Source of the DNA: Rhodospirillaceae bacterium
Lineage (GTDB): Bacteria; Pseudomonadota; Alphaproteobacteria; CACIAM-22H2
Direction: 5' to 3'
Assembly (NCBI GenBank): GCA_022843945.1
Contig: JALHMR010000020.1
Coordinates: 1 to 64,000 of the forward strand
DNA: 64,000 bases
Shown here: in pieces, positions 2,442 to 13,170 of the stretch
How positions within the stretch are numbered: position 1 is the stretch's first letter
Layout: every line of letters starts with the position of its first letter
Made by a program: the position numbers and the translations under genes
The notes under the pieces: model-generated
Databases searched by the model: none
Told to the model about the DNA's origin: nothing
Seen by the model: only the letters and a program-made list of their open reading frames with translations

Positions 2442-2918
2442 ATGAGCGACGACGGCGCCGAGCTCGACCTGTATCTGCGGCCTTACCGCAGCCTGTCGCC
2501 GACCGGCTTCTGGGTCGTCATGGCCATCCTCGCCGCCTGGAGCTTCGTCGGCGGCATCGTCTTCTGGATCGTCGGCGCCTGGCCGGTGATCGGCTTCGTC
2601 GGCGTCGACGTCGCCTTGGTCTGGTGGGCTTTCAAGGCCAGCTACGGCGACCGCCGCGCCTACGAGCGCCTGCGCCTAGCCAAGGGCGTGTTCACCGTGG
2701 AGCGCAGCGACAAGCGCGGCGCCCGGGAGCACCACGAGTTCCCGTCCTACTGGCTCAAGGTGACGCTGGAAGAGCAGCCGCCCGACAGCAACCGGGTGGT
2801 GCTGTCGAGTCACGGAAGGCATCTGGTGGTCGGCGGTTTCCTCGGCCCCAGGCAGCGCGAAGAGGTGGTCACAATATTGAGCGAGGCACTGGCCCGCGCG
2901 CGGGCCACACCCGTCTAG
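2442..2918 (+). CDS. DUF2244 membrane protein
   Basis: About 158 residues. A short acidic N-terminus and PYRSLSPTGFW precede two close transmembrane helices (about residues 25-70). A cytoplasmic domain with RRAYERLRLAKGVFTVER and a C-terminal GGFLGPRQREEVVTILSEAL follows. This layout matches the DUF2244 family of alphaproteobacteria, whose function is unknown. ATG at 2442 is favoured; ATG at 2415 would add nine residues. Its stop overlaps that of convergent dapB by 3-4 bases, so the two transcripts must read into each other. Confidence 0.85.
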   Translation: MSDDGAELDLYLRPYRSLSPTGFWVVMAILAAWSFVGGIVFWIVGAWPVIGFVGVDVALVWWAFKASYGDRRAYERLRLAKGVFTVERSDKRGAREHHEFPSYWLKVTLEEQPPDSNRVVLSSHGRHLVVGGFLGPRQREEVVTILSEALARARATPV

Positions 2919-3721
2919 AGGCCCAGCACGTCCTTCATGCTGTAGAGGCCCGGCGCCTTGCCGCGAGCCCACAGAGCGGCGCGCACCGCGCCGCTGGCAT
3001 AGCCGCGCCGGCTGGTCGCCTTGTGGGCGATCTCGATACGCTCGCCCTCGCCGCAGAACATGACCACGTGGTCGCCGACCTCGCTGCCGCCGCGCGCACT
3101 GGTGAAGCCGATGGCGCCCGCGGCCCGTGCGCCGGTGTGGCCGTCGCGCCCGCGCACCGCGACCTCATCCAGCTTCACCTTGCGGCCGCGCGCCGCCGCC
3201 TGGCCGAAGGCCAGCGCCGTGCCCGAGGGTGCGTCGACCTTGTGCTTGTGATGGATCTCGAAGATCTCGATGTCGTAGTCGGGACCGAGGCTGGCCGCGA
3301 CCCGTTCGGTCAGCGCCTCCAGCAGGTTCACCGCCAGGTTCATATTGGGCGAGCGCACGATGACGGCCTTCTTCGCCGCCTCGGCGATCGCCTGATCGTC
3401 GGCCGCGCTCAGACCGGTGGTGCCGATGACATGCACCTTGCCCAGCTCCGCGGCGAGGCGGGCATGCGCCACGCTGGCGGCGGGCGCAGTGAAATCGATC
3501 ACCGCATCGGCGCCGGCGAACAGCGCTTTGGCGTCACCGCCGACCTTCACCTGCAGCGGGCCCACACCCGCCAGGTCGCCGATGTCTCGCCCGATGAAGG
3601 GGCTGCCATGCGCCTCCGTGCCGCCGGCAAAGGCGCAGCCCTTGGTGCCGATGATCTCGCGCACCAGCATCTGCCCCATGCGCCCGGCACAGCCGGTCAC
3701 GCCGATTCGAAAGTCCGCCAT
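2915..3721 (-). CDS. dapB: 4-hydroxy-tetrahydrodipicolinate reductase
   Basis: 268 residues; NAD(P)H-dependent step of the lysine/diaminopimelate pathway. The N-terminal Rossmann motif is GVTGCAGRMGQM (residues 7-18). The central signature HHKHKVDAPSGTAL contains the catalytic His and substrate-binding Lys, and GIGL-type C-terminal residues are present. Start ATG at 3719-3721 (MADFRIGVTG) is supported by GGGGA about 10 nt upstream; a reading extended to 3802 would run into the intergenic repeat. Monocistronic in appearance, convergent with the DUF2244 gene. Confidence 0.96.
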   Translation of the reverse strand: MADFRIGVTGCAGRMGQMLVREIIGTKGCAFAGGTEAHGSPFIGRDIGDLAGVGPLQVKVGGDAKALFAGADAVIDFTAPAASVAHARLAAELGKVHVIGTTGLSAADDQAIAEAAKKAVIVRSPNMNLAVNLLEALTERVAASLGPDYDIEIFEIHHKHKVDAPSGTALAFGQAAARGRKVKLDEVAVRGRDGHTGARAAGAIGFTSARGGSEVGDHVVMFCGEGERIEIAHKATSRRGYASGAVRAALWARGKAPGLYSMKDVLGL

Positions 3722-3773
3722 GACAGTCCCCGCTGAAAACGTGCCGCATTCAATCACAGGCGGTGACTGTACG

Positions 3774-3878
3774 CCATGCTTCGAGGCTCGCTTCGCTCGC
3801 ACCTCAGCATGAGGTGCGTGAACAAAGAGGCCTCACCCTGAGGTGCGAGCCCGCCAGGGCGAGCCTCGAAGGGTGAGG
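3774..3878. repeat. Dispersed palindromic intergenic repeat, copy 2
   Basis: A second copy of the element at 364-470, lying between the dapB start and the dprE2 stop. It again has a first unit around CGAGGCTCGCTTCGCTCGCA and a second unit CCTCACCCTGAGGTGCGAGC ... GCGAGCCTCGAAGGGTGAGG, whose ends CCTCACCCT and AGGGTGAGG pair perfectly. The hairpin could end transcription or protect the upstream operon mRNA. Confidence 0.82.
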
Positions 3879-3884
3879 ACCACG

Positions 3885-4655
3885 TCAGATATTCAGCTTC
3901 TTGAAGATCCGCTCGGGGATCAGGCGGATGATGGTCATGATGATCAGCCAGATGCCGGGCGTGTAGAGGGTCTCCGCACCCTTCTTGGCCGCCTTGAGCG
4001 ACGCCGCGGCGACCGTCTCGGGTGCCGCCATCATCGGCATGTCGTTGAGCCCGTAGCTCATCGCCGTGTCGACCGGGCCGGGCTTCACCGTGGTCACCGT
4101 GCAGCCGGCGCGGAACAGGCGCGCCCGCAAGCCCTGCAGGTAGGCATTCAGGCCGGCCTTGGCCGAACCGTAGACGTAGTTCTTGAGCCGGCCGCGATCG
4201 CCGGCCACCGAGGTCAGCACCACCACGCGGCCGGCGCGCCGGGCTTCCAGCACGGGGGCCGCGACATGCAGGATATGCGCAGCACCCGTGTAGTTGGCCT
4301 CGATCACCTTGGCGATCAGCGCGGGATCGGCATCGATCTCGCCTTGCGACGGCATGGTGCCGAAGGCGAGGAAGATGTTGAGCAACCCGTCGCCGGCGAA
4401 GGCCTTGGCCTGGGCAACCGTCGCTGCGTGGGAGGCGTAGTCGGTCGCATCGAAGGCGACGACGCCGGCCCGCCGGCCGGAACGCGCCCGCAGGTCGGCG
4501 GCGGTCGCTTCCATGTCCGTCCTGTCGCGACCGGCCAGCAGGATATCGGCCTCCGCCGAGGCCGCGCGGGCAAAGGCCCGGGCGATGGCCGAGGAGGCGC
4601 CGAGGATCAGCCAGGTCTCGTTCAAGGGCTTCTCGCTTGGGGAGGTGTCGCTCAT
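3885..4655 (-). CDS. dprE2: DprE2-like decaprenylphospho-erythro-pentofuranosid-2-ulose 2-reductase (SDR)
   Basis: 256 residues. A short-chain dehydrogenase with the NAD(P) motif LGASSAIA (about 18-25) and the catalytic pair in NYVYGSAKAG. The segment GDRGRLKNYVYGSAKA and the C-terminal membrane-associated tail IMTIIRLIPERIFKKLNI are characteristic of DprE2. In mycobacteria this enzyme reduces the 2-keto lipid made by DprE1 to decaprenylphosphoryl-D-arabinose. Its start overlaps the upstream dprE1 stop as ATGA, indicating translational coupling. Substrate in this organism is inferred from the operon. Confidence 0.85.
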   Translation of the reverse strand: MSDTSPSEKPLNETWLILGASSAIARAFARAASAEADILLAGRDRTDMEATAADLRARSGRRAGVVAFDATDYASHAATVAQAKAFAGDGLLNIFLAFGTMPSQGEIDADPALIAKVIEANYTGAAHILHVAAPVLEARRAGRVVVLTSVAGDRGRLKNYVYGSAKAGLNAYLQGLRARLFRAGCTVTTVKPGPVDTAMSYGLNDMPMMAAPETVAAASLKAAKKGAETLYTPGIWLIIMTIIRLIPERIFKKLNI

Positions 4656-5992
4656 GGGGCGCCCTTGAGGCCGAGGCGCCGCGCCTGGTCCGACATCAGC
4701 CGGCTCGCAGGGTCGACCTTGGCCAGCACCCGCTCGAAGCGCGGCAGCAACGGATACATGGCGCGGAAGCCCTCACGGGTGAGTAGCGAATCCTTGGCCA
4801 GGTAGATGCGGCCCTGGTGGTCGAGGGTGATCGCCTCCAGCCGGCGCAGCAGTCCATCGGCGCCATTGATGCGCGGGAAATCGAGCGCCAGGGTGAAACC
4901 GCGCATCGGAAACGAGAGGTGTCCGCGGCCGGAACGGCCGAGCGTCTTGAGCACGGCGAGGAAAGACGGATTGCCGGCCTCCGAGATCGCCTCGAGCAGA
5001 CGGCGCAGGCCGGCGCGGGCGCCGGCATCGGGCAGCACGCACTGGAACTGGTAGAAGCCGCGCTTGCCGTAGATGCGGTTCCAGCCGTGCAGCGCGTCGA
5101 GGGGATAGAGGAACTCGGCGAAGGATTTCCTGCGCTCGCGGCCGGTCTGGGGTACCCGCCGGTAATGTTGGGCGTTGAAGGCCTTCACCGTGAAATGGTT
5201 GAGGGCAAAGCCGGGAAAGTCGAAGGGGACGCGGTGCGGGTTACGCGGTTTGGGCAGGGTGTCGTGCGCTTCGAACTCCGCCGTCTCAAGGATGCCACGA
5301 CCCAGCGCCGCACCCGTGGCCACGGCATCGATCCAGCCGACCGAGAAGGTCGAGCGGTCGCGGATGGTGGCGAAGGCCTCGATGTATTCGTCGAGGTCGC
5401 GGATGCGCCGCTCCTTGACCCGCACCCATGGCGAAGCGTTGGGCAGCAGGCGGAAGGCCACCGCCCGCACGATCCCGGTCAGGCCCATGCCGCCGATGGT
5501 GGCGGCGAACAGTTCGGCATCGTTCTGGGCGTCGACCCGCCTGGTCGTGCCGTCGGCCAGCAGCAGGTCGAACCATTCAACGTGGTCGCCGAAGCCGCCG
5601 TGGCGGTCGTGGTTCTTGCCGTGCACGTCGGCGGCCAGCGCCCCGCCCACGGTGGCGAAGGACGTGCCGGGGCTGGCCGCCGGCATGAAGCCGCGCGGCA
5701 GGAAGATCTCCATCAAGTTGGCGAACGTGACGCCGGGCTCGCAGATGACAAGGCCGGTCGCGGCATCGAAGCCCAGCACGCGGTCGAGACGCTCGGTCAG
5801 CACGACGCGGCCGTTGGTGTTGAGCGCCGAGTCGCCGTAAGCGCGGCCCGCCCCGTGGGCGATCAGCGTGCCGGATGCCGTGTCGGCCATCGCCTCATCG
5901 AGATCGCGCGGACGCTCGGGGCGCGCCGCCTCCACGCTGGCGACGTGCGAGCGTCCCCAGCCGGTCAGCGTCATCTTCTTCCAGCGGGTCAT
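4652..5992 (-). CDS. dprE1: DprE1-like decaprenylphosphoryl-beta-D-ribose 2'-oxidase
   Basis: 446 residues, close to mycobacterial DprE1. A PCMH-type FAD domain includes GAGRAYGDSALN (47-58) and SFATVGGALAADVHGKNHD (111-129). The C-terminal substrate domain contains LSFPMRGFTLALDFP and YLAKDSLLTREGFRAMYP, where K400 matches the catalytic Lys418. The residue equivalent to Cys387, the covalent target of benzothiazinones, is Ala369. The enzyme oxidises the 2'-OH of polyprenylphosphoryl ribose. Start ATG at 5990-5992 overlaps the ubiA stop (ATGA). A longer open frame reaching 8002 on this strand is antisense to the next gene and is not real. Confidence 0.9.
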   Translation of the reverse strand: MTRWKKMTLTGWGRSHVASVEAARPERPRDLDEAMADTASGTLIAHGAGRAYGDSALNTNGRVVLTERLDRVLGFDAATGLVICEPGVTFANLMEIFLPRGFMPAASPGTSFATVGGALAADVHGKNHDRHGGFGDHVEWFDLLLADGTTRRVDAQNDAELFAATIGGMGLTGIVRAVAFRLLPNASPWVRVKERRIRDLDEYIEAFATIRDRSTFSVGWIDAVATGAALGRGILETAEFEAHDTLPKPRNPHRVPFDFPGFALNHFTVKAFNAQHYRRVPQTGRERRKSFAEFLYPLDALHGWNRIYGKRGFYQFQCVLPDAGARAGLRRLLEAISEAGNPSFLAVLKTLGRSGRGHLSFPMRGFTLALDFPRINGADGLLRRLEAITLDHQGRIYLAKDSLLTREGFRAMYPLLPRFERVLAKVDPASRLMSDQARRLGLKGAP

Positions 5993-6879
5993 CGTGCGCC
6001 GTACATCAGGAAGGCGAAGGTGGCGATCCAGCCAACGACCGCCAGGATCAAAAAGCGGTCGGTGAGCGCCAGATCGGTCGGCGAGCCGGAACGCTCCTCG
6101 ACCAGGGCGACCTGCAGATAGCGCAGGACGCCGGCAGTGACGAAGGGCGCGGTCAGGTAGAGCTGATCGGTGCCGTAGCGGCGGATGACGCCCTCGTTCG
6201 TCGTGTAGATGAGATAGGAGACGAGCAGGGCCGCGAGAACGACCGCCAGCGCCGCATCGACAAAACGCAGATTGTAGCCGGCCAGTGCGGGACGGTGCGT
6301 GTCGGCCAGGTCCCGGGCGAGATCGTCGCGCCGCTTGGCCAGCGCCATGAACAGGGCGAGCAGGAAGGTGCAGATGACGATCCACACGGTGGGCGCGACA
6401 CCGATGGCCGCCGAGCCGGCATCGACCCGCAGCACAAAGCCGATGGCCACGATCATCACGTCGAGGACCGAGATGTGCTTGAGCCACAGCGAATAGGCGG
6501 TCGAGGCGAGCGCGTAGAGCGCGGCGTAGACGGCAAAGCCCGGCGGCATGAAGGCCGCCGTAAGCCCGGCCGCCGCGGCCAGCAGGACCAGGCTGAAGGC
6601 GAGGCCGGCGGCCGGCGAGATCTCGCCCGAGGCGATGGGCCGGCTGCGCTTCTTGGGATGCTGGCGGTCGGCCTCGCGGTCGCACCAGTCGTTGAAGGCG
6701 TAGATGGCGCTGGCCAGCAGGCAAAAGATCGCCACCGCCAGCGCAACCCGGACGAGGTTGGCAGCGTTGATGGCCTCGGGCGTGAAGAACAGCGGGGCCA
6801 CCACGAAGGCGTTCTTGACCCACTGACGCGGACGGGCGAGGCGGAGGAGAGCGGACGGCGATGCAGCCACGGGCGGCAC
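5989..6879 (-). CDS. UbiA-family polyprenyl-phosphate 5-phosphoribosyltransferase (DPPR synthase-like)
   Basis: 296 residues, polytopic membrane protein with about 8-9 helices. The prenyl-phosphate/Mg site is NDWCDREADRQHPKKRSRPI (about 62-81), the NDxxDxxxD pattern of UbiA enzymes, followed by IASG. The second loop has VLRVDAGSAAIG. This arrangement and the link to dprE1-dprE2 match Rv3806c-type enzymes that move phosphoribose from PRPP to polyprenyl phosphate. It appears to be the first gene of a three-gene operon with 4-bp overlaps. Start is GTG at 6877-6879; a second GTG nine bases in is possible. Confidence 0.87.
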   Translation of the reverse strand: MPPVAASPSALLRLARPRQWVKNAFVVAPLFFTPEAINAANLVRVALAVAIFCLLASAIYAFNDWCDREADRQHPKKRSRPIASGEISPAAGLAFSLVLLAAAAGLTAAFMPPGFAVYAALYALASTAYSLWLKHISVLDVMIVAIGFVLRVDAGSAAIGVAPTVWIVICTFLLALFMALAKRRDDLARDLADTHRPALAGYNLRFVDAALAVVLAALLVSYLIYTTNEGVIRRYGTDQLYLTAPFVTAGVLRYLQVALVEERSGSPTDLALTDRFLILAVVGWIATFAFLMYGAR

Positions 6880-7087
6880 TTATAAGGGCTTGGCCGGCAA
6901 CCGCAAAGAGCGGCAAACGGCAGAGGCGGGGGAGGGTGCGGACCGGGAATAACGCGCGGGGCTGGCCCGTAATTCTGGCACCCCGGGACGCGTTCCCAGG
7001 GCCCCGCGAATTGGCGTACAACAGCGTCGGCTTCCTGCCCGCACCCGCTGTTGCCGCTCGGTTCGCGGCGTCTTTTACGTCAAATTC

Positions 7088-8752
7088 ATGAGCACCGCCC
7101 CCGCCTCCTTCCCGCCTGCACGCTGGCTCACCGGCCTCGCTTTCCTCCTCGCCGCCGTGCTCGCCGCCCTGGCCTTGCGGCCGGTGGCGCATGTCTACGA
7201 CATGCCGATGACCGAGGACGGCTATTACGCCCTGGCCGTGGCCCGCAACCTCGCCGCCGGCAACGGCCTGACCATCGACGGCGTCAACCTGACCAACGGC
7301 TTCCAGCCCCTGTTCACCCTCCTGCAGGGCGCGATGTTCTGGCTCGCCGGCGGCGAGGAGATCACCGCCATGCGCCTGGTCATGGGGCTGGGCTGGCTGT
7401 TCCATATCGGCGGCGCGCTGCTGGTCGCCGCCCTCGCGCGCGACGCCTGGCCGGCGCTGCAGGGGGAGAACGAGAAGCGCCTGCGCGCGGCGCTGGCCGC
7501 CGTCCTCTATCTCGCCTCGCCGCTGATGCTCAACCACGCCTATAACGGGTTGGAGACCGGCTGCGTCATGTTCTTCTACGCGGCCATCGCGCGCTGGATG
7601 CAACTGTCGCGCGACGAAACCTGGCCCGGCCTCGCCATCATGGGAGCGCTGGTCGGCCTGCTGGTGCTGGCCCGCATCGACGCGGCCTTCGTGGCCCTGG
7701 TCCTCGGCCTCAACGAGCTGCGGCGCGCCTGGCCTCGCGGCTTGGCGATCACGCTGGCGCGCGGCGCCGTGCTCGGCGGCACGGCCCTCGTCGTGTCGCT
7801 GCCCTGGTGGCTCTACAACACGATCTATTTCGGCTCGCCCATGCCGACCAGCGGCACGGCGCAGCAGGCTTGGGGGCTCGAATGGCTGCGGCTCGAACAT
7901 GCCGAATGGGCGCTGCGTCTCGTGCTTTTCCCCTGGCTGTTCGCCGGCGCGCATGAAGGCGCCATCGGCGTCGATGTGCCCGTCCCCGCCGAGCCCGGCC
8001 ATATGACCATGACGCTGATGGGCTTCCTGCGCACGGCGGCACTCGCCGGCGTGGCGCTGGTGCTATGGCAGGCCTGGCGCTCGGGCGTGATGCGCCGCGA
8101 TCTCGATGCCGCGAGCGGCGAGGAGCGCCGGCGCATCGAACGCACGCGCGAATTCGCCGCCTGCTTCCTCATCGCCTTTGCCGGCCTGGTCGTCTATTAC
8201 GCCTTCTCGTTCATCGCCTACTGGTTCTACTACCGCTACTTCGCGCCGCTGGCCCTGATCGCCTTCGTGGTAGCGCCGATCCTCGCGGCGCGCTGGCTGG
8301 TCGGGCGGCCGTCGCCCCGCCCCGCCACCATCGTCATCGCCGCGCTGGCACTGCAGCTCGTCGCCCTCGCTGGCTTTGCCTGGGTCGGGCGCGGCCTGGG
8401 CGGCAACACCGTCTATCACGACCAGGTGGCGCTGGTGCGTCAGCACGTGCCGCCCGAGGCCGAGGTCGCGGCCGGCCAATCGGGCACGCTCGGCTTCTTC
8501 CGTACCCGCGTGGTCAACACCGACGGCAAGGTCAACCGCGAGGCGCTCGCCTACCAGGACCGCATGTGGGAGTACCTGCGTGCACGCGACGTGCGCTGGT
8601 TCGTCGACTGGCCGTTCTACATCAACAAGTATCTCGGCGTGCCGCTCGACCCGGCGACCGGGCTGGCGCTGGCCGAAGGCAATGGCTGGCGGCGCGTGGC
8701 CGAGCAGAATTACTTCTATCTCTACGAATATGTCGGGCCGCCCGCGCGTTGA
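7088..8752 (+). CDS. GT-C type membrane glycosyltransferase, candidate pentosyl/arabinosyltransferase
   Basis: 554 residues with a signal-anchor helix at 12-32 and about ten further helices. The first large periplasmic loop has DMPMTEDGYYALAVARNLAAG, with the acidic pair placed as in GT-C enzymes that use polyprenyl-phosphate sugars, then NLTNGFQPLF. The C-terminal third is a soluble periplasmic domain. Divergent from ubiA-dprE1-dprE2 across about 208 bp, which suggests co-regulation and makes a polyprenylphosphoryl-arabinose donor plausible; the acceptor is unknown. ATG at 7088 is the only reasonable start. Confidence 0.78.
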   Translation: MSTAPASFPPARWLTGLAFLLAAVLAALALRPVAHVYDMPMTEDGYYALAVARNLAAGNGLTIDGVNLTNGFQPLFTLLQGAMFWLAGGEEITAMRLVMGLGWLFHIGGALLVAALARDAWPALQGENEKRLRAALAAVLYLASPLMLNHAYNGLETGCVMFFYAAIARWMQLSRDETWPGLAIMGALVGLLVLARIDAAFVALVLGLNELRRAWPRGLAITLARGAVLGGTALVVSLPWWLYNTIYFGSPMPTSGTAQQAWGLEWLRLEHAEWALRLVLFPWLFAGAHEGAIGVDVPVPAEPGHMTMTLMGFLRTAALAGVALVLWQAWRSGVMRRDLDAASGEERRRIERTREFAACFLIAFAGLVVYYAFSFIAYWFYYRYFAPLALIAFVVAPILAARWLVGRPSPRPATIVIAALALQLVALAGFAWVGRGLGGNTVYHDQVALVRQHVPPEAEVAAGQSGTLGFFRTRVVNTDGKVNREALAYQDRMWEYLRARDVRWFVDWPFYINKYLGVPLDPATGLALAEGNGWRRVAEQNYFYLYEYVGPPAR

Positions 8753-8763
8753 GCTGAACAAGC

Positions 8764-8788
8764 CGGTTAACGGGTCACCCGTTAACCG
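8764..8788. repeat. Perfect hairpin / palindrome after the GT-C gene
   Basis: CGGTTAACGGG, a 3-base loop TCA, then CCCGTTAACCG: an 11-bp perfect stem beginning 11 bases after the stop at 8752. There is no T run on either strand, so it is either a factor-dependent or mRNA-stabilising structure, or a binding site for a dimeric regulator in front of the next gene at 8906. Confidence 0.7.
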
Positions 8789-8905
8789 AATCATCGCGAT
8801 CACGTCCTTATAGTTCTTACAATTGTCGCCACGGCCAAGCCGTGCTGTATTAACCGCCTGAAAAACCAGTGGTATCGGATAACGGTACCGCCAGGGTCGG
8901 GGGGA

Positions 8906-10600
8906 ATGGGCGCTCTGGGACACGACCGGCTGTATCGTCTCGCCACGCTCGCGCTGTTCGGCGCGGCGCTCTATCTCGTCTGCGACACGGTCGTCGATTA
9001 CGGCATCACCTGGGACGAGCACTATCACGAGGCCTATGGCCGCCACGTCCTCGACTATTACCGCTCCGGCTTTCGCGACCAGGCGGCGCTGACCTATCAC
9101 AATCTCTGGCTCTACGGCGGCGCCTTCGACGGGCTGACGGCGCTGGTCAAGACCGTCTCGCCGCTCGGCAACTACGAGACGGCGCATCTGATGAACGCGC
9201 TGGTGGGACTGGCCGGCGTGCTTGCCGCCTACCGCATGGGCTGCCTGTTCGACGGCCCGCGCGCCGGCTTCTGGGCCGCGACCCTGCTGCTGATCACGCC
9301 GTCCTGGTACGGCCACATGTTCAACAACCCGAAGGACATCCCCTTCGCCGCCGGCATCGCCTGGTCGCTCTATTTCATGATCCGCGCGGCGCCGCATTTC
9401 CCGCGTGTCCCTCTGAACATCACCCTGTGGCTCGGCCTGTGCCTGGGCCTGACGCTGGGCGTGCGCATCGCCGGCGTCTTCGCGCTGATCTACCTGGGCG
9501 CGGCGCTGGCCTTGTGGGCGAGCTTGCGGCTGCGCGAGGCCGGGCTCGCCACGGCGTGGCGCGAGTCATGGCGCGTCAGCCTGACCTTCCTCCTCCCCAG
9601 CCTCGCCGTCGCCTGGCTGGTGATGCTCGCCGGCTGGCCCTGGGCGCAGCAGAACCCGCTGCTCCATCCGCTCCAGGCGCTGACCACCTTCTCCAACAAC
9701 CCGTGGGATCTCGACACGCTGTTCGAGGGACGGCTGGTCAACTCGCTGGACCTGCCGCCGGACTACCTGTCGGTCTATTTCCTGATCCGCACGCCGGAGT
9801 TGATCCTGGTCCTGCTCGCGGCGGCGCTGGTCCTCACCGGCGCCGCGCTCCGGCGCCACCGGGCCCTGCCGGAGTGGAGCGTGTTCTCGCCCTATTTCGT
9901 GCTGACCTTCGCCGCGGCTTTTCCCTTTGTCTTCTTCATCGCCTTCCGGCCGGTGAGCTATGACGGCATCCGGCATTTCCTGTTCGTGCTGCCGCCGGTG
10001 GCGGTGATCGCGGGTGTCGCGCTGGCCCGCCTGTTCGCGGCCCTGAGCACGCGCCCGCTCTGGCCGCGCGCGGCGTTCTCGGCGGTGATCCTGGCCTATC
10101 TCGGCTGGCACACCAGCTTCATGCGCGAGCTGCACCCCGACCAGTACGTCTACTACAACCAGCTGGTCGGCGGCGTCGACGGGGCGGAGAACAAGTACGA
10201 GCTCGACTACTGGGGCAACTCCTACCACGAGGCCGTCGACCGGCTCGTCGCCTACATCAACGCCGAGGAGCAGCTCGGGCCGCCGCCGGTCTACCGCATC
10301 ATGGTGTGCTCGAGCGGCATCTCGGCCGCCTACTACTTCCCCAAGCATTTCATTCTGGCGCGCAACGAGCGCGAGGCGGATTTCTATATCTCGAATACCC
10401 GGCTTGGCTGCGACACCGAATACGAGGGCGAGACCATCATCAGCGTCGAGCGCGATGACGCCGTTCTCAGCGTGGTCAAGGATCGCCGCTGGCTGCGGGC
10501 GATGGCGCCCGAGCGGCTGGAGGCGCGTCTGAAGCCGGTCGGCTTCCAGCGCCAGCATCCGGGCGTGCCGCTCGATGTCCTCGACGTGATGGACTACTGA
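8906..10600 (+). CDS. GT-C / ArnT-like (GT39/GT83-type) membrane glycosyltransferase
   Basis: 564 residues, about 10-12 membrane helices, with a C-terminal periplasmic domain. The first periplasmic loop has YGITWDEHYHEAYGRHVLDY, where the DE pair is the catalytic acidic motif of PMT/ArnT-like enzymes. The second loop has MFNNPKDIPFA, a segment frequent in this superfamily. It would transfer a sugar from polyprenyl phosphate to an envelope acceptor such as lipid A or a protein. Start ATG at 8906 follows a G-rich stretch at 8898-8904. Its last 125 bases overlap the convergent GT2 gene, which is unusual. Confidence 0.8.
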   Translation: MGALGHDRLYRLATLALFGAALYLVCDTVVDYGITWDEHYHEAYGRHVLDYYRSGFRDQAALTYHNLWLYGGAFDGLTALVKTVSPLGNYETAHLMNALVGLAGVLAAYRMGCLFDGPRAGFWAATLLLITPSWYGHMFNNPKDIPFAAGIAWSLYFMIRAAPHFPRVPLNITLWLGLCLGLTLGVRIAGVFALIYLGAALALWASLRLREAGLATAWRESWRVSLTFLLPSLAVAWLVMLAGWPWAQQNPLLHPLQALTTFSNNPWDLDTLFEGRLVNSLDLPPDYLSVYFLIRTPELILVLLAAALVLTGAALRRHRALPEWSVFSPYFVLTFAAAFPFVFFIAFRPVSYDGIRHFLFVLPPVAVIAGVALARLFAALSTRPLWPRAAFSAVILAYLGWHTSFMRELHPDQYVYYNQLVGGVDGAENKYELDYWGNSYHEAVDRLVAYINAEEQLGPPPVYRIMVCSSGISAAYYFPKHFILARNEREADFYISNTRLGCDTEYEGETIISVERDDAVLSVVKDRRWLRAMAPERLEARLKPVGFQRQHPGVPLDVLDVMDY

Positions 10601-11567
10601 GGCTGTCTTCCGCCTCGCCGAAGCCCAGGCGCTCGCTGACGAGGTAGAGCGGCCGCCCCTTCACCTCGGCAAAGACGCGGCCGAGATAGGCGCCGAACAG
10701 GCCCAGGGTCAGCAGCTGGATGCTGCCCAGCAGCAGCACCGCGACCATCACCGAGGCGTAGCCCGGGACATCCACGCCCCAGACCAGGGTGCGCACGACG
10801 AAGTACATGCCGAGCAGCAGCGAGGGCGCGGCGAGAATGGCGCCGAGATAGCCGGCGACGACCAGCGGGAAGGTGCTGAAACTGGCTAAACCGTCGACGG
10901 CGAAGGCCGTGAGGCGGGGGAGCGACCAGGTCGTGGCCCCGGCGCGGCGCTCGGCCGGATCGTAGGCGACGCCGATCTGGCGGAAGCCGACCCAGGCGAA
11001 GAGGCCCTTCATGAAGCGCGCGCGCTCGGGCATGGCGTTGAGCGCGTCGACCACCTTGCGGTCGAGCAGCCTGAAATCGCCCGCCCCCGGCGGCAGCCGG
11101 ATATCGGAGAAGCGCTCGAACAGGGCGTAGAAGCTGCGGCTGAGGACGCTGCGCAGCCAGGAATCGGTCACCCGGCTGCGCCGGCTGGCGTAGATCATGT
11201 CGTAGCCCTCGCGCCACTTGGCGAGGAGCTCGGCGATCAGCTCGGGCGGATGCTGCAGGTCGGCATCGATCGGCACCACCGCCAGGCCCTGGGCATGCCT
11301 GAGCCCGGCCGAGAGCGCGATGTCCTTGCCGAAGTTGCGCGACAGGCGCAGCAGCCGCAGCCGGGGATCGCGGCGCTGGCGCGCCGCCAGCCTGTCCCAG
11401 CTGTCGTCGCGGCTGCCGTCATCGACGCAGACGATCTCGCTGCTGATGCCGAGCTGCTGCAGCACCGCGTCGAGGCGGCCGAAGAACGCCTCGAGATTGG
11501 CGCCCTCGTTGTAGACGGGCACCACGATCGACAGCTCCGGAGCGTCAGGCGGCCGACGCTGATCCAT
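10476..11567 (-). CDS. GT2 polyprenyl-phosphate glycosyltransferase (GtrB/ArnC/FlmF-like)
   Basis: 363 residues. An N-terminal GT-A fold contains LSIVVPVYNEG (about 12-22), CVDDGSRDDSW and the catalytic PIDADLQHPPELI. Two membrane helices lie at about 230-255 and 265-295. This is the layout of enzymes that load a sugar onto undecaprenyl phosphate on the cytoplasmic face. The normal domain ends near LGFGEAEDSLS. Beyond it is a 40-residue Ala/Pro/Arg-rich tail translated antisense to the neighbouring GT-C gene, probably a readthrough after loss of the original stop. Divergent from the deacetylase gene at 11636. Confidence 0.9.
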   Translation of the reverse strand: MDQRRPPDAPELSIVVPVYNEGANLEAFFGRLDAVLQQLGISSEIVCVDDGSRDDSWDRLAARQRRDPRLRLLRLSRNFGKDIALSAGLRHAQGLAVVPIDADLQHPPELIAELLAKWREGYDMIYASRRSRVTDSWLRSVLSRSFYALFERFSDIRLPPGAGDFRLLDRKVVDALNAMPERARFMKGLFAWVGFRQIGVAYDPAERRAGATTWSLPRLTAFAVDGLASFSTFPLVVAGYLGAILAAPSLLLGMYFVVRTLVWGVDVPGYASVMVAVLLLGSIQLLTLGLFGAYLGRVFAEVKGRPLYLVSERLGFGEAEDSLSSPSRRGHRAARPDAGAGSRPASDAPPAARAPSPAASGDP

Positions 11568-11635
11568 GGCGTTCCCCCGGGGTCTTTTGCGCTATCCTTC
11601 GCATCTCTCGTCCCCAGGTCAACCCGTTCGCTCCC

Positions 11636-12460
11636 GTGACCCGCCTCATCCTCTGCGCCGACGATTACGGGCTCGCCCCCGGGGTCAGCCGGGCCATCGT
11701 CCGCCTGCTCGCCGCCGGCCGGCTGAGCGCCGCGAGCTGCATCACCGTGACACGCTTCTGGCCGGAGCAGGCAGCGGCCCTGCGGCCGTTCGCCGACCGG
11801 GCCGATATCGGCCTGCACCTGACCCTGACCGATCTCAAGCCGCTCGGCTCCCTGCCCGAGCTCGCCCCCGCGGGAACGCTGCCGCCGATCACCACGCTCC
11901 TCGCCCGCGCCCTCCTGCGCCGCCTGCCGCGCCAGGAGATCGCCGCCGAGTTCGAGCGTCAGCTCGCTGCCTTCGAAAGCGCATTCGGTCGCCCCCCCGC
12001 TTTCCTCGACGGTCATCTCCATGTCCAGCAATTGCCGATGGTGCGCGACGTGGTGATCGAGCTGTGGCAGCGCCGGTTGCGGGGCGCGGGCGCCTGGCTG
12101 CGCATCGCCGATGAGCTGGCACTGGAGAACGGCATCAAGGGCCTGACGATCGCCCTTCTCGGCCGCGGCCTGCGCCGCCGCGCGCGGCAGGCCGGCGCCC
12201 CGGCCAACGACCGCTTCGCCGGCGTCTACGATCTCACCGACCGGGTTCCCTACGGCGCGCTGTTCGAGCGCTTCGTCGCCGGAAACGGCGCGCCGAACCA
12301 GCGCCTGCTGGTCATGTGCCATCCCGGCGAGGTCGACGATGAGCTGCGCGCGGTCGACCCGGTGACCGCGGCCCGCGAAGCCGAGCTGCGCTTTCTCGAA
12401 GGGCCGGACTTCCTGCCGCTGCTCGCCCGCCACGGCCTCACCCTCGGCCGGTTCGCCTAG
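11636..12460 (+). CDS. ChbG/HpnK (YdjC) family carbohydrate deacetylase, NaxD-like
   Basis: 274 residues. YdjC-family metal-binding residues are seen as CADDYGLAPGVS (DD at 9-10), GLHLTLTD and DGHLHVQQLP, with a late CHPGEVDD. Family members remove acetyl groups from N-acetylhexosamines. In Francisella and Bordetella the relative NaxD deacetylates a polyprenyl-linked amino sugar between a GT2 and an ArnT-like enzyme, and both partner types are present next to this gene. Hopanoid HpnK is the other option, but no hopanoid genes are in view. GTG start at 11636. Confidence 0.83.
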   Translation: MTRLILCADDYGLAPGVSRAIVRLLAAGRLSAASCITVTRFWPEQAAALRPFADRADIGLHLTLTDLKPLGSLPELAPAGTLPPITTLLARALLRRLPRQEIAAEFERQLAAFESAFGRPPAFLDGHLHVQQLPMVRDVVIELWQRRLRGAGAWLRIADELALENGIKGLTIALLGRGLRRRARQAGAPANDRFAGVYDLTDRVPYGALFERFVAGNGAPNQRLLVMCHPGEVDDELRAVDPVTAAREAELRFLEGPDFLPLLARHGLTLGRFA

Positions 12461-13170
12461 GTGGATGCAAGACTAGGGGCGGATGCAAGATAGGTGCGGC
12501 GCACCGGATGGAAGCCGAGATTGCGCGGCGCCCGGCTGACGGAAAATCCGGCCGCCTGCAGCAGCGCCGTCATCTCCGCCTCGCCGTAGATGGCAAAGCC
12601 CAGATCGTGCCGCAGGCGCCGGTAGTCCGAAAAGAACGTCGCCGCCAGGCCGGCGAGGGCCGGCAGCAGGAAGCCGTGTCGCGCCGCCGTGCCGAGGAGC
12701 GAGCGGATATCGTCGAGCATGCGCGCCTCGGGCGGAATGACGTCGGCCACCACCAGCAGGCCGCCGGGCGCCAGCCAGCGCCGCGCCCGGGCCAGCAACG
12801 GCGGCAGGGCGGCCCGCGGCAGGTACTGCACGACCGAGAAGATGATCACCGCATCGACCGCGCCGTCGCCCAGGGCTGCCAGCCCGGCATCATCGAGAAC
12901 GGTGATGCCGGTCTCGCCGGCGAAGCGCTCGCGCAGGCGCGCCTGCACCGAGGGCGCGGCATCGTAGAGAGTGAGATGCCCGACGCCGGCAGCGACCTGC
13001 CCCGCCTCCAGCGCTTCGCCGCAACCATAGTCGAGCACCCGCAGGCCCGGCCGCGGCGGCAGGATGCCGAGAATCTCGTCGGCCACGCGCCGGTAGTGGA
13101 CGCGCAAGTGACGGTCGTTGACGTAGATGCGGTGCGGGCGGTCCCAAAAGCGAAGCCACGAATCGGCCAT
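12457..13170 (-). CDS. Class I SAM-dependent methyltransferase
   Basis: 237 residues. Motif I is VLDYGCGEALEAG (about 44-56), followed by an acidic residue in LTLYDAAP (motif II) and the motif IV-like AVIIFSVVQYLPR. The enzyme binds S-adenosylmethionine; the substrate is unknown. Its position beside glycosyltransferases hints at a lipid or sugar substrate, but this is only context. Start ATG at 13168-13170. The stop overlaps that of the convergent deacetylase gene by 4 bp. Confidence 0.85.
   Translation of the reverse strand: MADSWLRFWDRPHRIYVNDRHLRVHYRRVADEILGILPPRPGLRVLDYGCGEALEAGQVAAGVGHLTLYDAAPSVQARLRERFAGETGITVLDDAGLAALGDGAVDAVIIFSVVQYLPRAALPPLLARARRWLAPGGLLVVADVIPPEARMLDDIRSLLGTAARHGFLLPALAGLAATFFSDYRRLRHDLGFAIYGEAEMTALLQAAGFSVSRAPRNLGFHPVRRTYLASAPSLAST

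What the first reader, a model, noticed from the sequence alone, without database searches (positions are those of the whole stretch)
3885..10600. Mycobacterial-type polyprenylphosphoryl-arabinose operon in an alphaproteobacterium with its own GT-C enzymes
UbiA-type phosphoribosyltransferase, DprE1 and DprE2 homologues form one operon with successive ATGA overlaps, and a GT-C membrane glycosyltransferase is transcribed divergently with another following. Established knowledge: these three activities make decaprenylphosphoryl-D-arabinose, the donor for arabinogalactan. Arabinose decoration is known in a few proteobacteria (for example Nod factors or pilins). Here no nod or pilin genes are near, so the acceptor (LPS, glycoprotein, capsule) is unknown. 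The phosphatase that should act between UbiA and DprE1 is not seen.
Basis: partly seen in the sequence, partly recalled or inferred. Interest (0 to 1): 0.7.

Follow-up and report, generated by a model that had tools for sequence, protein, structure and literature searches.

The report
Arabinose-donor operon with AftB-like transferase
This alphaproteobacterium carries the same three enzymes that tuberculosis bacteria use to make lipid-linked D-arabinose, next to an unnamed membrane enzyme whose active site matches the tuberculosis arabinose transferase AftB and which travels with this pathway across many bacterial phyla, so it probably puts arabinose on a surface sugar chain.

Summary
On the minus strand ubiA (polyprenyl-phosphate phosphoribosyltransferase), dprE1 and dprE2 overlap by ATGA. 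A GT-C glycosyltransferase (GT-C1, 7088-8752) diverges from ubiA and a second (GT-C2, 8906-10600) follows. The donor enzymes are sound by profile, motif and synteny. The pathway itself is not exotic: 48 of 289 sampled genomes of the class carry the first enzyme, and Kelly et al. 2024 (PMC11127046) describe it as a common route for adding pentofuranoses outside the cytoplasm. What is new is GT-C1. No Pfam or NCBIfam model claims it. It aligns with mycobacterial AftB with all four functional residues matched. It occurs in 16 of 17 family relatives that carry the operon (the 17th is a broken contig) and in none of 5 that lack it. All 8 carriers in the class sample, and 36 of 40 carriers from many phyla, have the phosphoribosyltransferase. 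Relatives sit in pentofuranose loci of Rhodobacterales, a cyanobacterium and an actinobacterium. I read GT-C1 as the arabinofuranosyltransferase. The acceptor is probably a surface polysaccharide (inferred). GT-C2 shows no AftB resemblance and more likely belongs with neighbouring GT2/YdjC genes. The 5-phosphatase and flippase remain unidentified.

The parts
5989..6879 (-). ubiA-type polyprenyl-phosphate phosphoribosyltransferase (PPPRS/DPPRS), makes polyprenyl-P-5-phosphoribose from PRPP
   Evidence: NF008977 235 bits over cut-off; PDB 8j8j E 9e-31 with NDxxDxEADRxHPxKRxRPIA motif shared; motif conserved in 10 relatives
4652..5992 (-). dprE1, polyprenyl-P-ribose 2'-oxidase; catalytic Lys kept (K400 = Mtb K418), Mtb Cys387 replaced by Ala369
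   Evidence: NF053785 397 bits; PDB DprE1 E 3e-75 and alignment
3885..4655 (-). dprE2, SDR 2'-keto reductase completing the epimerisation
   Evidence: NF053786 184 bits, NF005489 249 bits; conserved in the operon
7088..8752 (+). GT-C1: AftB-like GT-C membrane glycosyltransferase, proposed polyprenyl-P-D-arabinofuranose-dependent arabinofuranosyltransferase; D44, E156, R196, R383 aligned with AftB D62, E172, R221, R372
6880..7087 (.). divergent intergenic region between ubiA and GT-C1 (same arrangement in G002, G003, G006)
8906..10600 (+). GT-C2: second GT-C glycosyltransferase, donor uncertain; in tandem after GT-C1 in 4 relatives
   Evidence: weak PMT_2
10476..11567 (-). GT2 polyprenyl-phosphate sugar synthase (PgfS/ArnC-like), candidate donor maker for GT-C2
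   Evidence: PF00535 E 3e-30; NF047588 250 bits of 500, PRK10714 162 of 529
11636..12460 (+). YdjC-family deacetylase, candidate partner of the GT2/GT-C2 module
   Evidence: PF04794 E 1.4e-50
12457..13170 (-). SAM methyltransferase, conserved in the same cassette in G015 (L072)
   Evidence: PF13649 E 1.6e-10
2915..3802 (-). dapB, conserved housekeeping neighbour downstream of dprE2; marks the conserved site of the operon

Best explanation
The operon makes polyprenyl-phosphoryl-beta-D-arabinofuranose: UbiA joins 5-phosphoribose from PRPP to polyprenyl phosphate, an unidentified phosphatase removes the 5-phosphate, and DprE1 plus DprE2 invert C2 (ribose to arabinose). The donor is flipped by an unidentified transporter. 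GT-C1 then transfers D-arabinofuranose in the periplasm with an AftB-like active site (D44 as catalytic Asp, R196 and R383 holding the phosphate, E156 near the sugar C5 hydroxyl), most likely as a side-chain or terminal residue on a surface polysaccharide. Shown here: gene identities, operon, conserved synteny, co-occurrence and linkage of GT-C1 with the pathway, residue correspondence with AftB. Inferred: donor sugar and enzyme activity. Inferred and weakest: acceptor class, and a retaining (beta) linkage by analogy with AftB.
For: Gene identities. Synteny in the family. GT-C1 is present in 16 family members with the operon and absent in 5 without (Fisher 2e-4). In 289 genomes of the class, 8 of 8 GT-C1 carriers (four families) have PPPRS against 40 of 281 non-carriers (Fisher 3.4e-7). 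In 40 GT-C1 carriers from many phyla, 36 have PPPRS and 24 DprE1; of 14 control genomes only Corynebacterium rings at these thresholds. Linkage far away: Rhodobacteraceae L152 and alphaproteobacterial L227 (HAD-UbiA, GtrA, DprE1, DprE2 with GT-C1), Ruegeria L239, Jannaschia L240, cyanobacterium Kovacikia L241, Solirubrobacteraceae L161. AftB: BLASTP 28-30% identity, E 1e-8 to 7e-8 as a pairwise comparison; hhalign 92% with all four functional residues in register; residues conserved in 44, 42, 44 and 44 of 44 family members; AftB residue roles from PMC12041299. Fold: model pLDDT 88.6; AftB 9dlh Z 15.4 over 424 residues with 17% identity, the highest identity in the list. Polysaccharide context: GT-C1 relatives beside Bac_transf and a UDP-sugar decarboxylase-like gene in nine genomes of one genus, and in polysaccharide clusters of Ruegeria, Jannaschia, Rhodovulum. 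D-arabinan exists in an alphaproteobacterium, Devosia submarina (PMC8707391).
Against: No biochemistry. DprE1 and DprE2 score under their curated cut-offs. The AftB resemblance is weak in sequence: real AftB tops at 35.8 bits against family members, the best of 100 local shuffles reached 31.2, and profile A5 does not find AftB in the PDB by hmmsearch. Some GT-C1 carriers have PPPRS but no DprE1, so parts of the family may transfer ribose or another pentose. No phosphatase of the HAD-PRP type, no GtrA and no PF03706 orthologue were found in the genome; the first of these searches had no positive control. The window itself holds no polysaccharide assembly cluster that I recognised.
Confidence: 0.72

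Rival explanations
1. GT-C1 is a general pentofuranosyltransferase and in this organism the transferred sugar is ribofuranose or a mixture; DprE1/DprE2 serve another transferase.
For: 16 of 40 GT-C1-family genomes lack a DprE1 hit although 12 of those have PPPRS; Jannaschia has HAD-UbiA next to GT-C1 and no dprE within 12 kb; the Citrobacter GT136 enzyme accepts both Ribf and Xylf (PMC11127046).
Against: In the window's own family GT-C1 tracks a full UbiA-DprE1-DprE2 operon and is divergent from it in four genera; only one GT-C1-like gene was found in this genome.
Confidence: 0.15
2. GT-C1 and GT-C2 are both arabinosyltransferases acting one after the other on the same acceptor, building a short arabinan.
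For: GT-C2 follows GT-C1 in tandem in G015, G020, G021, G022 as well as here, in three of them without GT2 or YdjC next to it; Devosia makes a D-arabinan (PMC8707391).
Against: GT-C2 has no AftB-like signal and only 63% hhalign probability to the GT-C1 profile over 132 columns; in the window and in L072 it sits with GT2, YdjC and a methyltransferase that suggest another donor.
Confidence: 0.25
3. GT-C2 with the GT2 synthase and the YdjC deacetylase is a separate polyprenyl-P-aminosugar module (working like Francisella FlmF2/NaxD/FlmK), unrelated to arabinose. This is compatible with the best explanation for GT-C1.
For: GT2 is PgfS/ArnC-like and YdjC is a carbohydrate deacetylase family; the same five genes GT-C1, GT-C2, GT2, MT, YdjC lie together in L072. 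The Francisella comparison is from general knowledge.
Against: GT2 and YdjC score below all curated NCBIfam cut-offs; in three relatives GT-C2 occurs with GT-C1 but without the module close by.
Confidence: 0.45
4. The operon serves Nod factor or pilin arabinosylation as in rhizobia or Pseudomonas.
For: The donor genes are homologous to noeC, noeH, noeO (PMC5080398).
Against: No nod or pilin genes recognised in the window; NoeP of IRBG74 (L243:6557-7762) shows no detectable similarity to the GT-C1 profile; related GT-C1 genes sit in polysaccharide clusters.
Confidence: 0.05

Closest known systems
Mycobacterial decaprenylphosphoryl-arabinose pathway (Rv3806c, Rv3807c, DprE1, DprE2) with AftB
   Same: Same three donor enzymes; GT-C1 shares the AftB active-site residues and GT-C fold.
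   Different: No Rv3807c-like gene linked; no Emb/AftA/AftD gene beside the operon (the rest of the genome was not searched for them); DprE1 has Ala at the benzothiazinone cysteine; AftB similarity only about 28%.
Three-component pentofuranose systems of Citrobacter youngae O1/O2 (PPPRS-PRP, MATE flippase, GT136), PMC11127046
   Same: PPPRS plus optional epimerase plus GT-C acting outside the cytoplasm; DprE1/E2 for arabinose is predicted there too.
   Different: No fused phosphatase and no linked flippase here; GT-C1 is AftB-like.
Rhizobial noeCNHOP Nod-factor arabinosylation operon (IRBG74, L243)
   Same: UbiA, DprE1, DprE2 in the same order.
   Different: Has a GtrA gene and NoeP as transferase; NoeP is not detectably related to GT-C1.
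Rhodobacterales pentofuranose loci (Ruegeria L239, Jannaschia L240, L152) and alphaproteobacterial L227
   Same: GT-C1-family gene, annotated 'hypothetical protein' on the plasmids, within the same loci.
   Different: UbiA carries an N-terminal HAD phosphatase and GtrA is present in most; the plasmid loci are surface-polysaccharide clusters.

Membership tests
Polyprenyl-phosphoryl-D-arabinose donor pathway | PPPRS with NDxxD..D motif and relatives solved as DPPRS | tested here: met
Polyprenyl-phosphoryl-D-arabinose donor pathway | DprE1 and DprE2 both present and in operon | tested here: met
   both below NCBIfam equivalog cut-offs, so the assignment rests on best matches, the operon and synteny
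Polyprenyl-phosphoryl-D-arabinose donor pathway | 5-phosphate phosphatase | tested here: inconclusive
   none in the operon; no HAD-PRP hit in the genome (no positive control); one PAP2 gene elsewhere, G000:C37:6411-6707
Polyprenyl-phosphoryl-D-arabinose donor pathway | D-arabinofuranose in an envelope glycan | not testable with these tools
   needs sugar analysis
AftB-like arabinofuranosyltransferase | GT-CA fold | tested here: met
   pLDDT 88.6; AftB 9dlh Z 15.4, rmsd 4.6, 424 aligned; not specific, ArnT and OST score higher
AftB-like arabinofuranosyltransferase | Functional residues D62, E172, R221, R372 | tested here: met
   aligned to D44, E156, R196, R383; conserved in 44, 42, 44, 44 of 44 members
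AftB-like arabinofuranosyltransferase | Use of polyprenyl-P-Araf, retaining transfer | not testable with these tools
   needs enzyme assay
Three-component pentofuranose system | Flippase (MATE, GtrA or other) encoded with the PPPRS | tested here: inconclusive
   no GtrA in the genome (the control genomes rang), no PF03706 orthologue; MATE family not searched in the genome
GT136 (Citrobacter ORF12) | Sequence similarity to ORF12 and C-terminal CBM | not tested
   ORF12 sequence not available here
NoeP arabinosyltransferase | Sequence similarity to NoeP | tested here: inconclusive
   hhalign probability 0.4% with a single-sequence template; a miss does not exclude a shared fold
ArnT (L-Ara4N) | Arn donor genes next to the GT-C | tested here: not met
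   donor genes beside GT-C1 are ubiA/dprE1/dprE2, not arnA/arnB; window GT2 scores 162 of 529 bits for ArnC; fold similarity to ArnT is general GT-C

The most novel reading that the evidence does not exclude
GT-C1 founds a phylum-spanning, so far unnamed family of AftB-like pentofuranosyltransferases, the acceptor-side enzyme of polyprenyl-P-arabinose pathways in many non-mycobacterial bacteria, some of them making retaining beta-linked arabinofuranose on surface polysaccharides.
Probability: 0.5. Interest if true: 0.6.

Novelty: new variant of a known kind. Interest (0 to 1): 0.48.

Why it matters
If right, a large set of genes now called 'hypothetical protein' can be named as arabinofuranosyl (or pentofuranosyl) transferases, giving a marker for D-arabinose-bearing glycans far outside mycobacteria. 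It would also give relatives outside mycobacteria in which AftB-type chemistry can be studied, and would explain what DprE1/DprE2 do in many of the proteobacteria that carry them.

Tried and rejected
Pfam and NCBIfam give no family above cut-off for GT-C1; only weak PMT_2 in 8 and NF047440 in 22 of 44 members. PDB sequence searches with GT-C1 and GT-C2 profiles found only chance matches. Flippase: GtrA absent from the genome, and the PF03706 protein that sits between ubiA and dprE1 in other Rhodospirillales has no orthologue in this family except a 26% match in G022. NoeP as the GT-C1 relative: no signal. Other GT-Cs of plasmid dprE loci (L245, L246): little or no signal.
Full report
What is there. 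On the minus strand ubiA (5989-6879), dprE1 (4652-5992) and dprE2 (3885-4655) are joined by ATGA overlaps, and two GT-C genes lie on the plus strand at 7088-8752 and 8906-10600. The donor genes are convincing. UbiA passes the curated cut-off of the decaprenyl-phosphate phosphoribosyltransferase model (235 against 234 bits), and DprE1 and DprE2 have their mycobacterial namesakes as top or near-top models, though under the equivalog cut-offs. Against solved structures, UbiA finds the mycobacterial DPPRS and DprE1 finds DprE1. In DprE1 the catalytic lysine is kept, while the cysteine that benzothiazinones attack is alanine here (Ala369 aligned with Cys387; the role of Cys387 is general knowledge).

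A long-standing chromosomal resident, not an island. In the window's family the operon lies between dapB/nth and dnaJ wherever the contig is long enough to see. The GC content of the stretch is that of the window. Relatives with names include Tagaea and other Rhodospirillales MAGs.

GT-C1 belongs to the pathway. In the family, 16 genomes have both the operon's ubiA and a GT-C1 homologue; five without that ubiA have no GT-C1; one congener (G001) has the operon on a contig that ends inside ubiA, so nothing can be said. GT-C1 sits divergent to ubiA in four genera but is unlinked in others, so the correlation is not simply synteny. In an even sample of 289 genomes of the class, 48 have PPPRS and 8 have GT-C1; all 8 are among the 48 (Fisher 3.4e-7, and 8e-5 without the own family). 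These 8 fall in only four families, so the tests overstate independence. A wider search found the GT-C1 family in many phyla: 36 of 40 such genomes have PPPRS and 24 have DprE1; of the 14 named controls only Corynebacterium rings. I could not run the matching background for those phyla.

Linkage elsewhere. L227 carries GT-C1, a HAD-UbiA fusion, GtrA, DprE1 and DprE2 in one run, and L152 has HAD-UbiA, GtrA, DprE1, DprE2, GT-C1. Ruegeria (L239) and Jannaschia (L240) plasmids hold it inside surface-polysaccharide clusters, Jannaschia without dprE genes within 12 kb. The cyanobacterium Kovacikia (L241) and a Solirubrobacteraceae MAG (L161) link it with all three donor genes. In one genus of the window's family, GT-C1 lies near a polysaccharide-initiating sugar transferase and a UDP-sugar decarboxylase-like gene in nine genomes. 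That makes a polysaccharide the likeliest acceptor, but it is inference for this genome.

What GT-C1 looks like. The AlphaFold model is good (pLDDT 88.6). Its fold matches GT-C enzymes in general; ArnT and oligosaccharyltransferases score highest by Z, while AftB has the highest identity (17% over 424 residues). The sequence evidence is more specific. I used AftB letters printed from PDB entry 9dlf (the query that pulled them out was recalled from memory, the letters compared are the tool's, with five unseen residues set to X). GT-C1 aligns with them at 28-30% identity, E 1e-8 to 7e-8 for the single comparison. The family profile aligns with 92% probability, bringing D44, E156, R196 and R383 onto AftB D62, E172, R221 and R372. 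In AftB, mutants of D62, R221 and R372 are inactive and E172 contacts the arabinose C5 hydroxyl (PMC12041299). These positions are conserved in 44, 42, 44 and 44 of 44 family members. A shuffle control shows the BLAST signal is above chance but modest (real best 35.8 bits, shuffled best 31.2). Another alphaproteobacterium (G050, L233) has a different GT-C, related to the same profile, divergent to the same operon.

GT-C2. It shows no AftB signal and little relation to GT-C1. Here and in L072 it is grouped with a GT2 polyprenyl-P-sugar synthase, a YdjC deacetylase and a methyltransferase, which suggests a different, possibly amino-sugar, donor. In three relatives it nevertheless follows GT-C1 without those genes, so a shared acceptor is possible.

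Gaps. No HAD-PRP phosphatase, GtrA, or PF03706 flippase candidate was found in this genome; one PAP2 gene exists. Precedent says a missing linked phosphatase need not be fatal: deleting noeN in IRBG74, proposed there as the phosphatase, only reduced arabinosylation (PMC5080398), although the second gene of that operon looks like GtrA by Pfam.

Against the literature. The pathway idea is known: PMC11127046 describes polyprenyl-P-ribose synthesis, optional epimerisation (DprE1/E2 for arabinose) and GT-C transfer as widespread. D-arabinan has been found in Devosia submarina, an alphaproteobacterium (PMC8707391). The new part is the AftB-like GT-C family, not the presence of the donor genes. Hence a middling interest score.

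Noticed in passing
L243:4082-4504 (Agrobacterium pusense IRBG74 symbiotic plasmid): The second gene of the Nod-factor arabinosylation operon, by position the gene proposed as phosphatase NoeN in PMC5080398, matches GtrA (PF04138) and not a phosphatase, so it may be the donor flippase.
   Followed up: partly
L098:8820-9809, L231:10291-11235, L229:10538-11515, L172, L181: In several other Rhodospirillales a PF03706 (LPG_synthase_TM) membrane protein sits between ubiA and dprE1, a flippase candidate that is missing from the window's family.
   Followed up: yes
L240:10420-13476 (Jannaschia plasmid p1): HAD-UbiA fusion directly followed by a GT-C1 relative with no dprE1 or dprE2 within 12 kb: a likely ribofuranose (or other pentofuranose) version of the system.
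   Followed up: partly
window 4652-5992: DprE1 has alanine at the position of Mtb Cys387, so it should be naturally insensitive to covalent benzothiazinones.
   Followed up: partly
L233:7572-9161 (G050): A different GT-C lies divergent to ubiA-dprE1-dprE2, the same architecture with another transferase (hhalign 96% to the GT-C1 profile over 158 columns).
   Followed up: partly
window 5989-6879: The second catalytic motif of this UbiA family reads KRRDD where mycobacterial DPPRS has KRYAE, a conservative Glu to Asp change invariant in ten relatives.
   Followed up: no
window 10476-13170 and L072:10853-15025: GT2, YdjC deacetylase and methyltransferase form a cassette with GT-C2 conserved in G015 but not found at the other relatives' GT-C loci.
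   Followed up: partly
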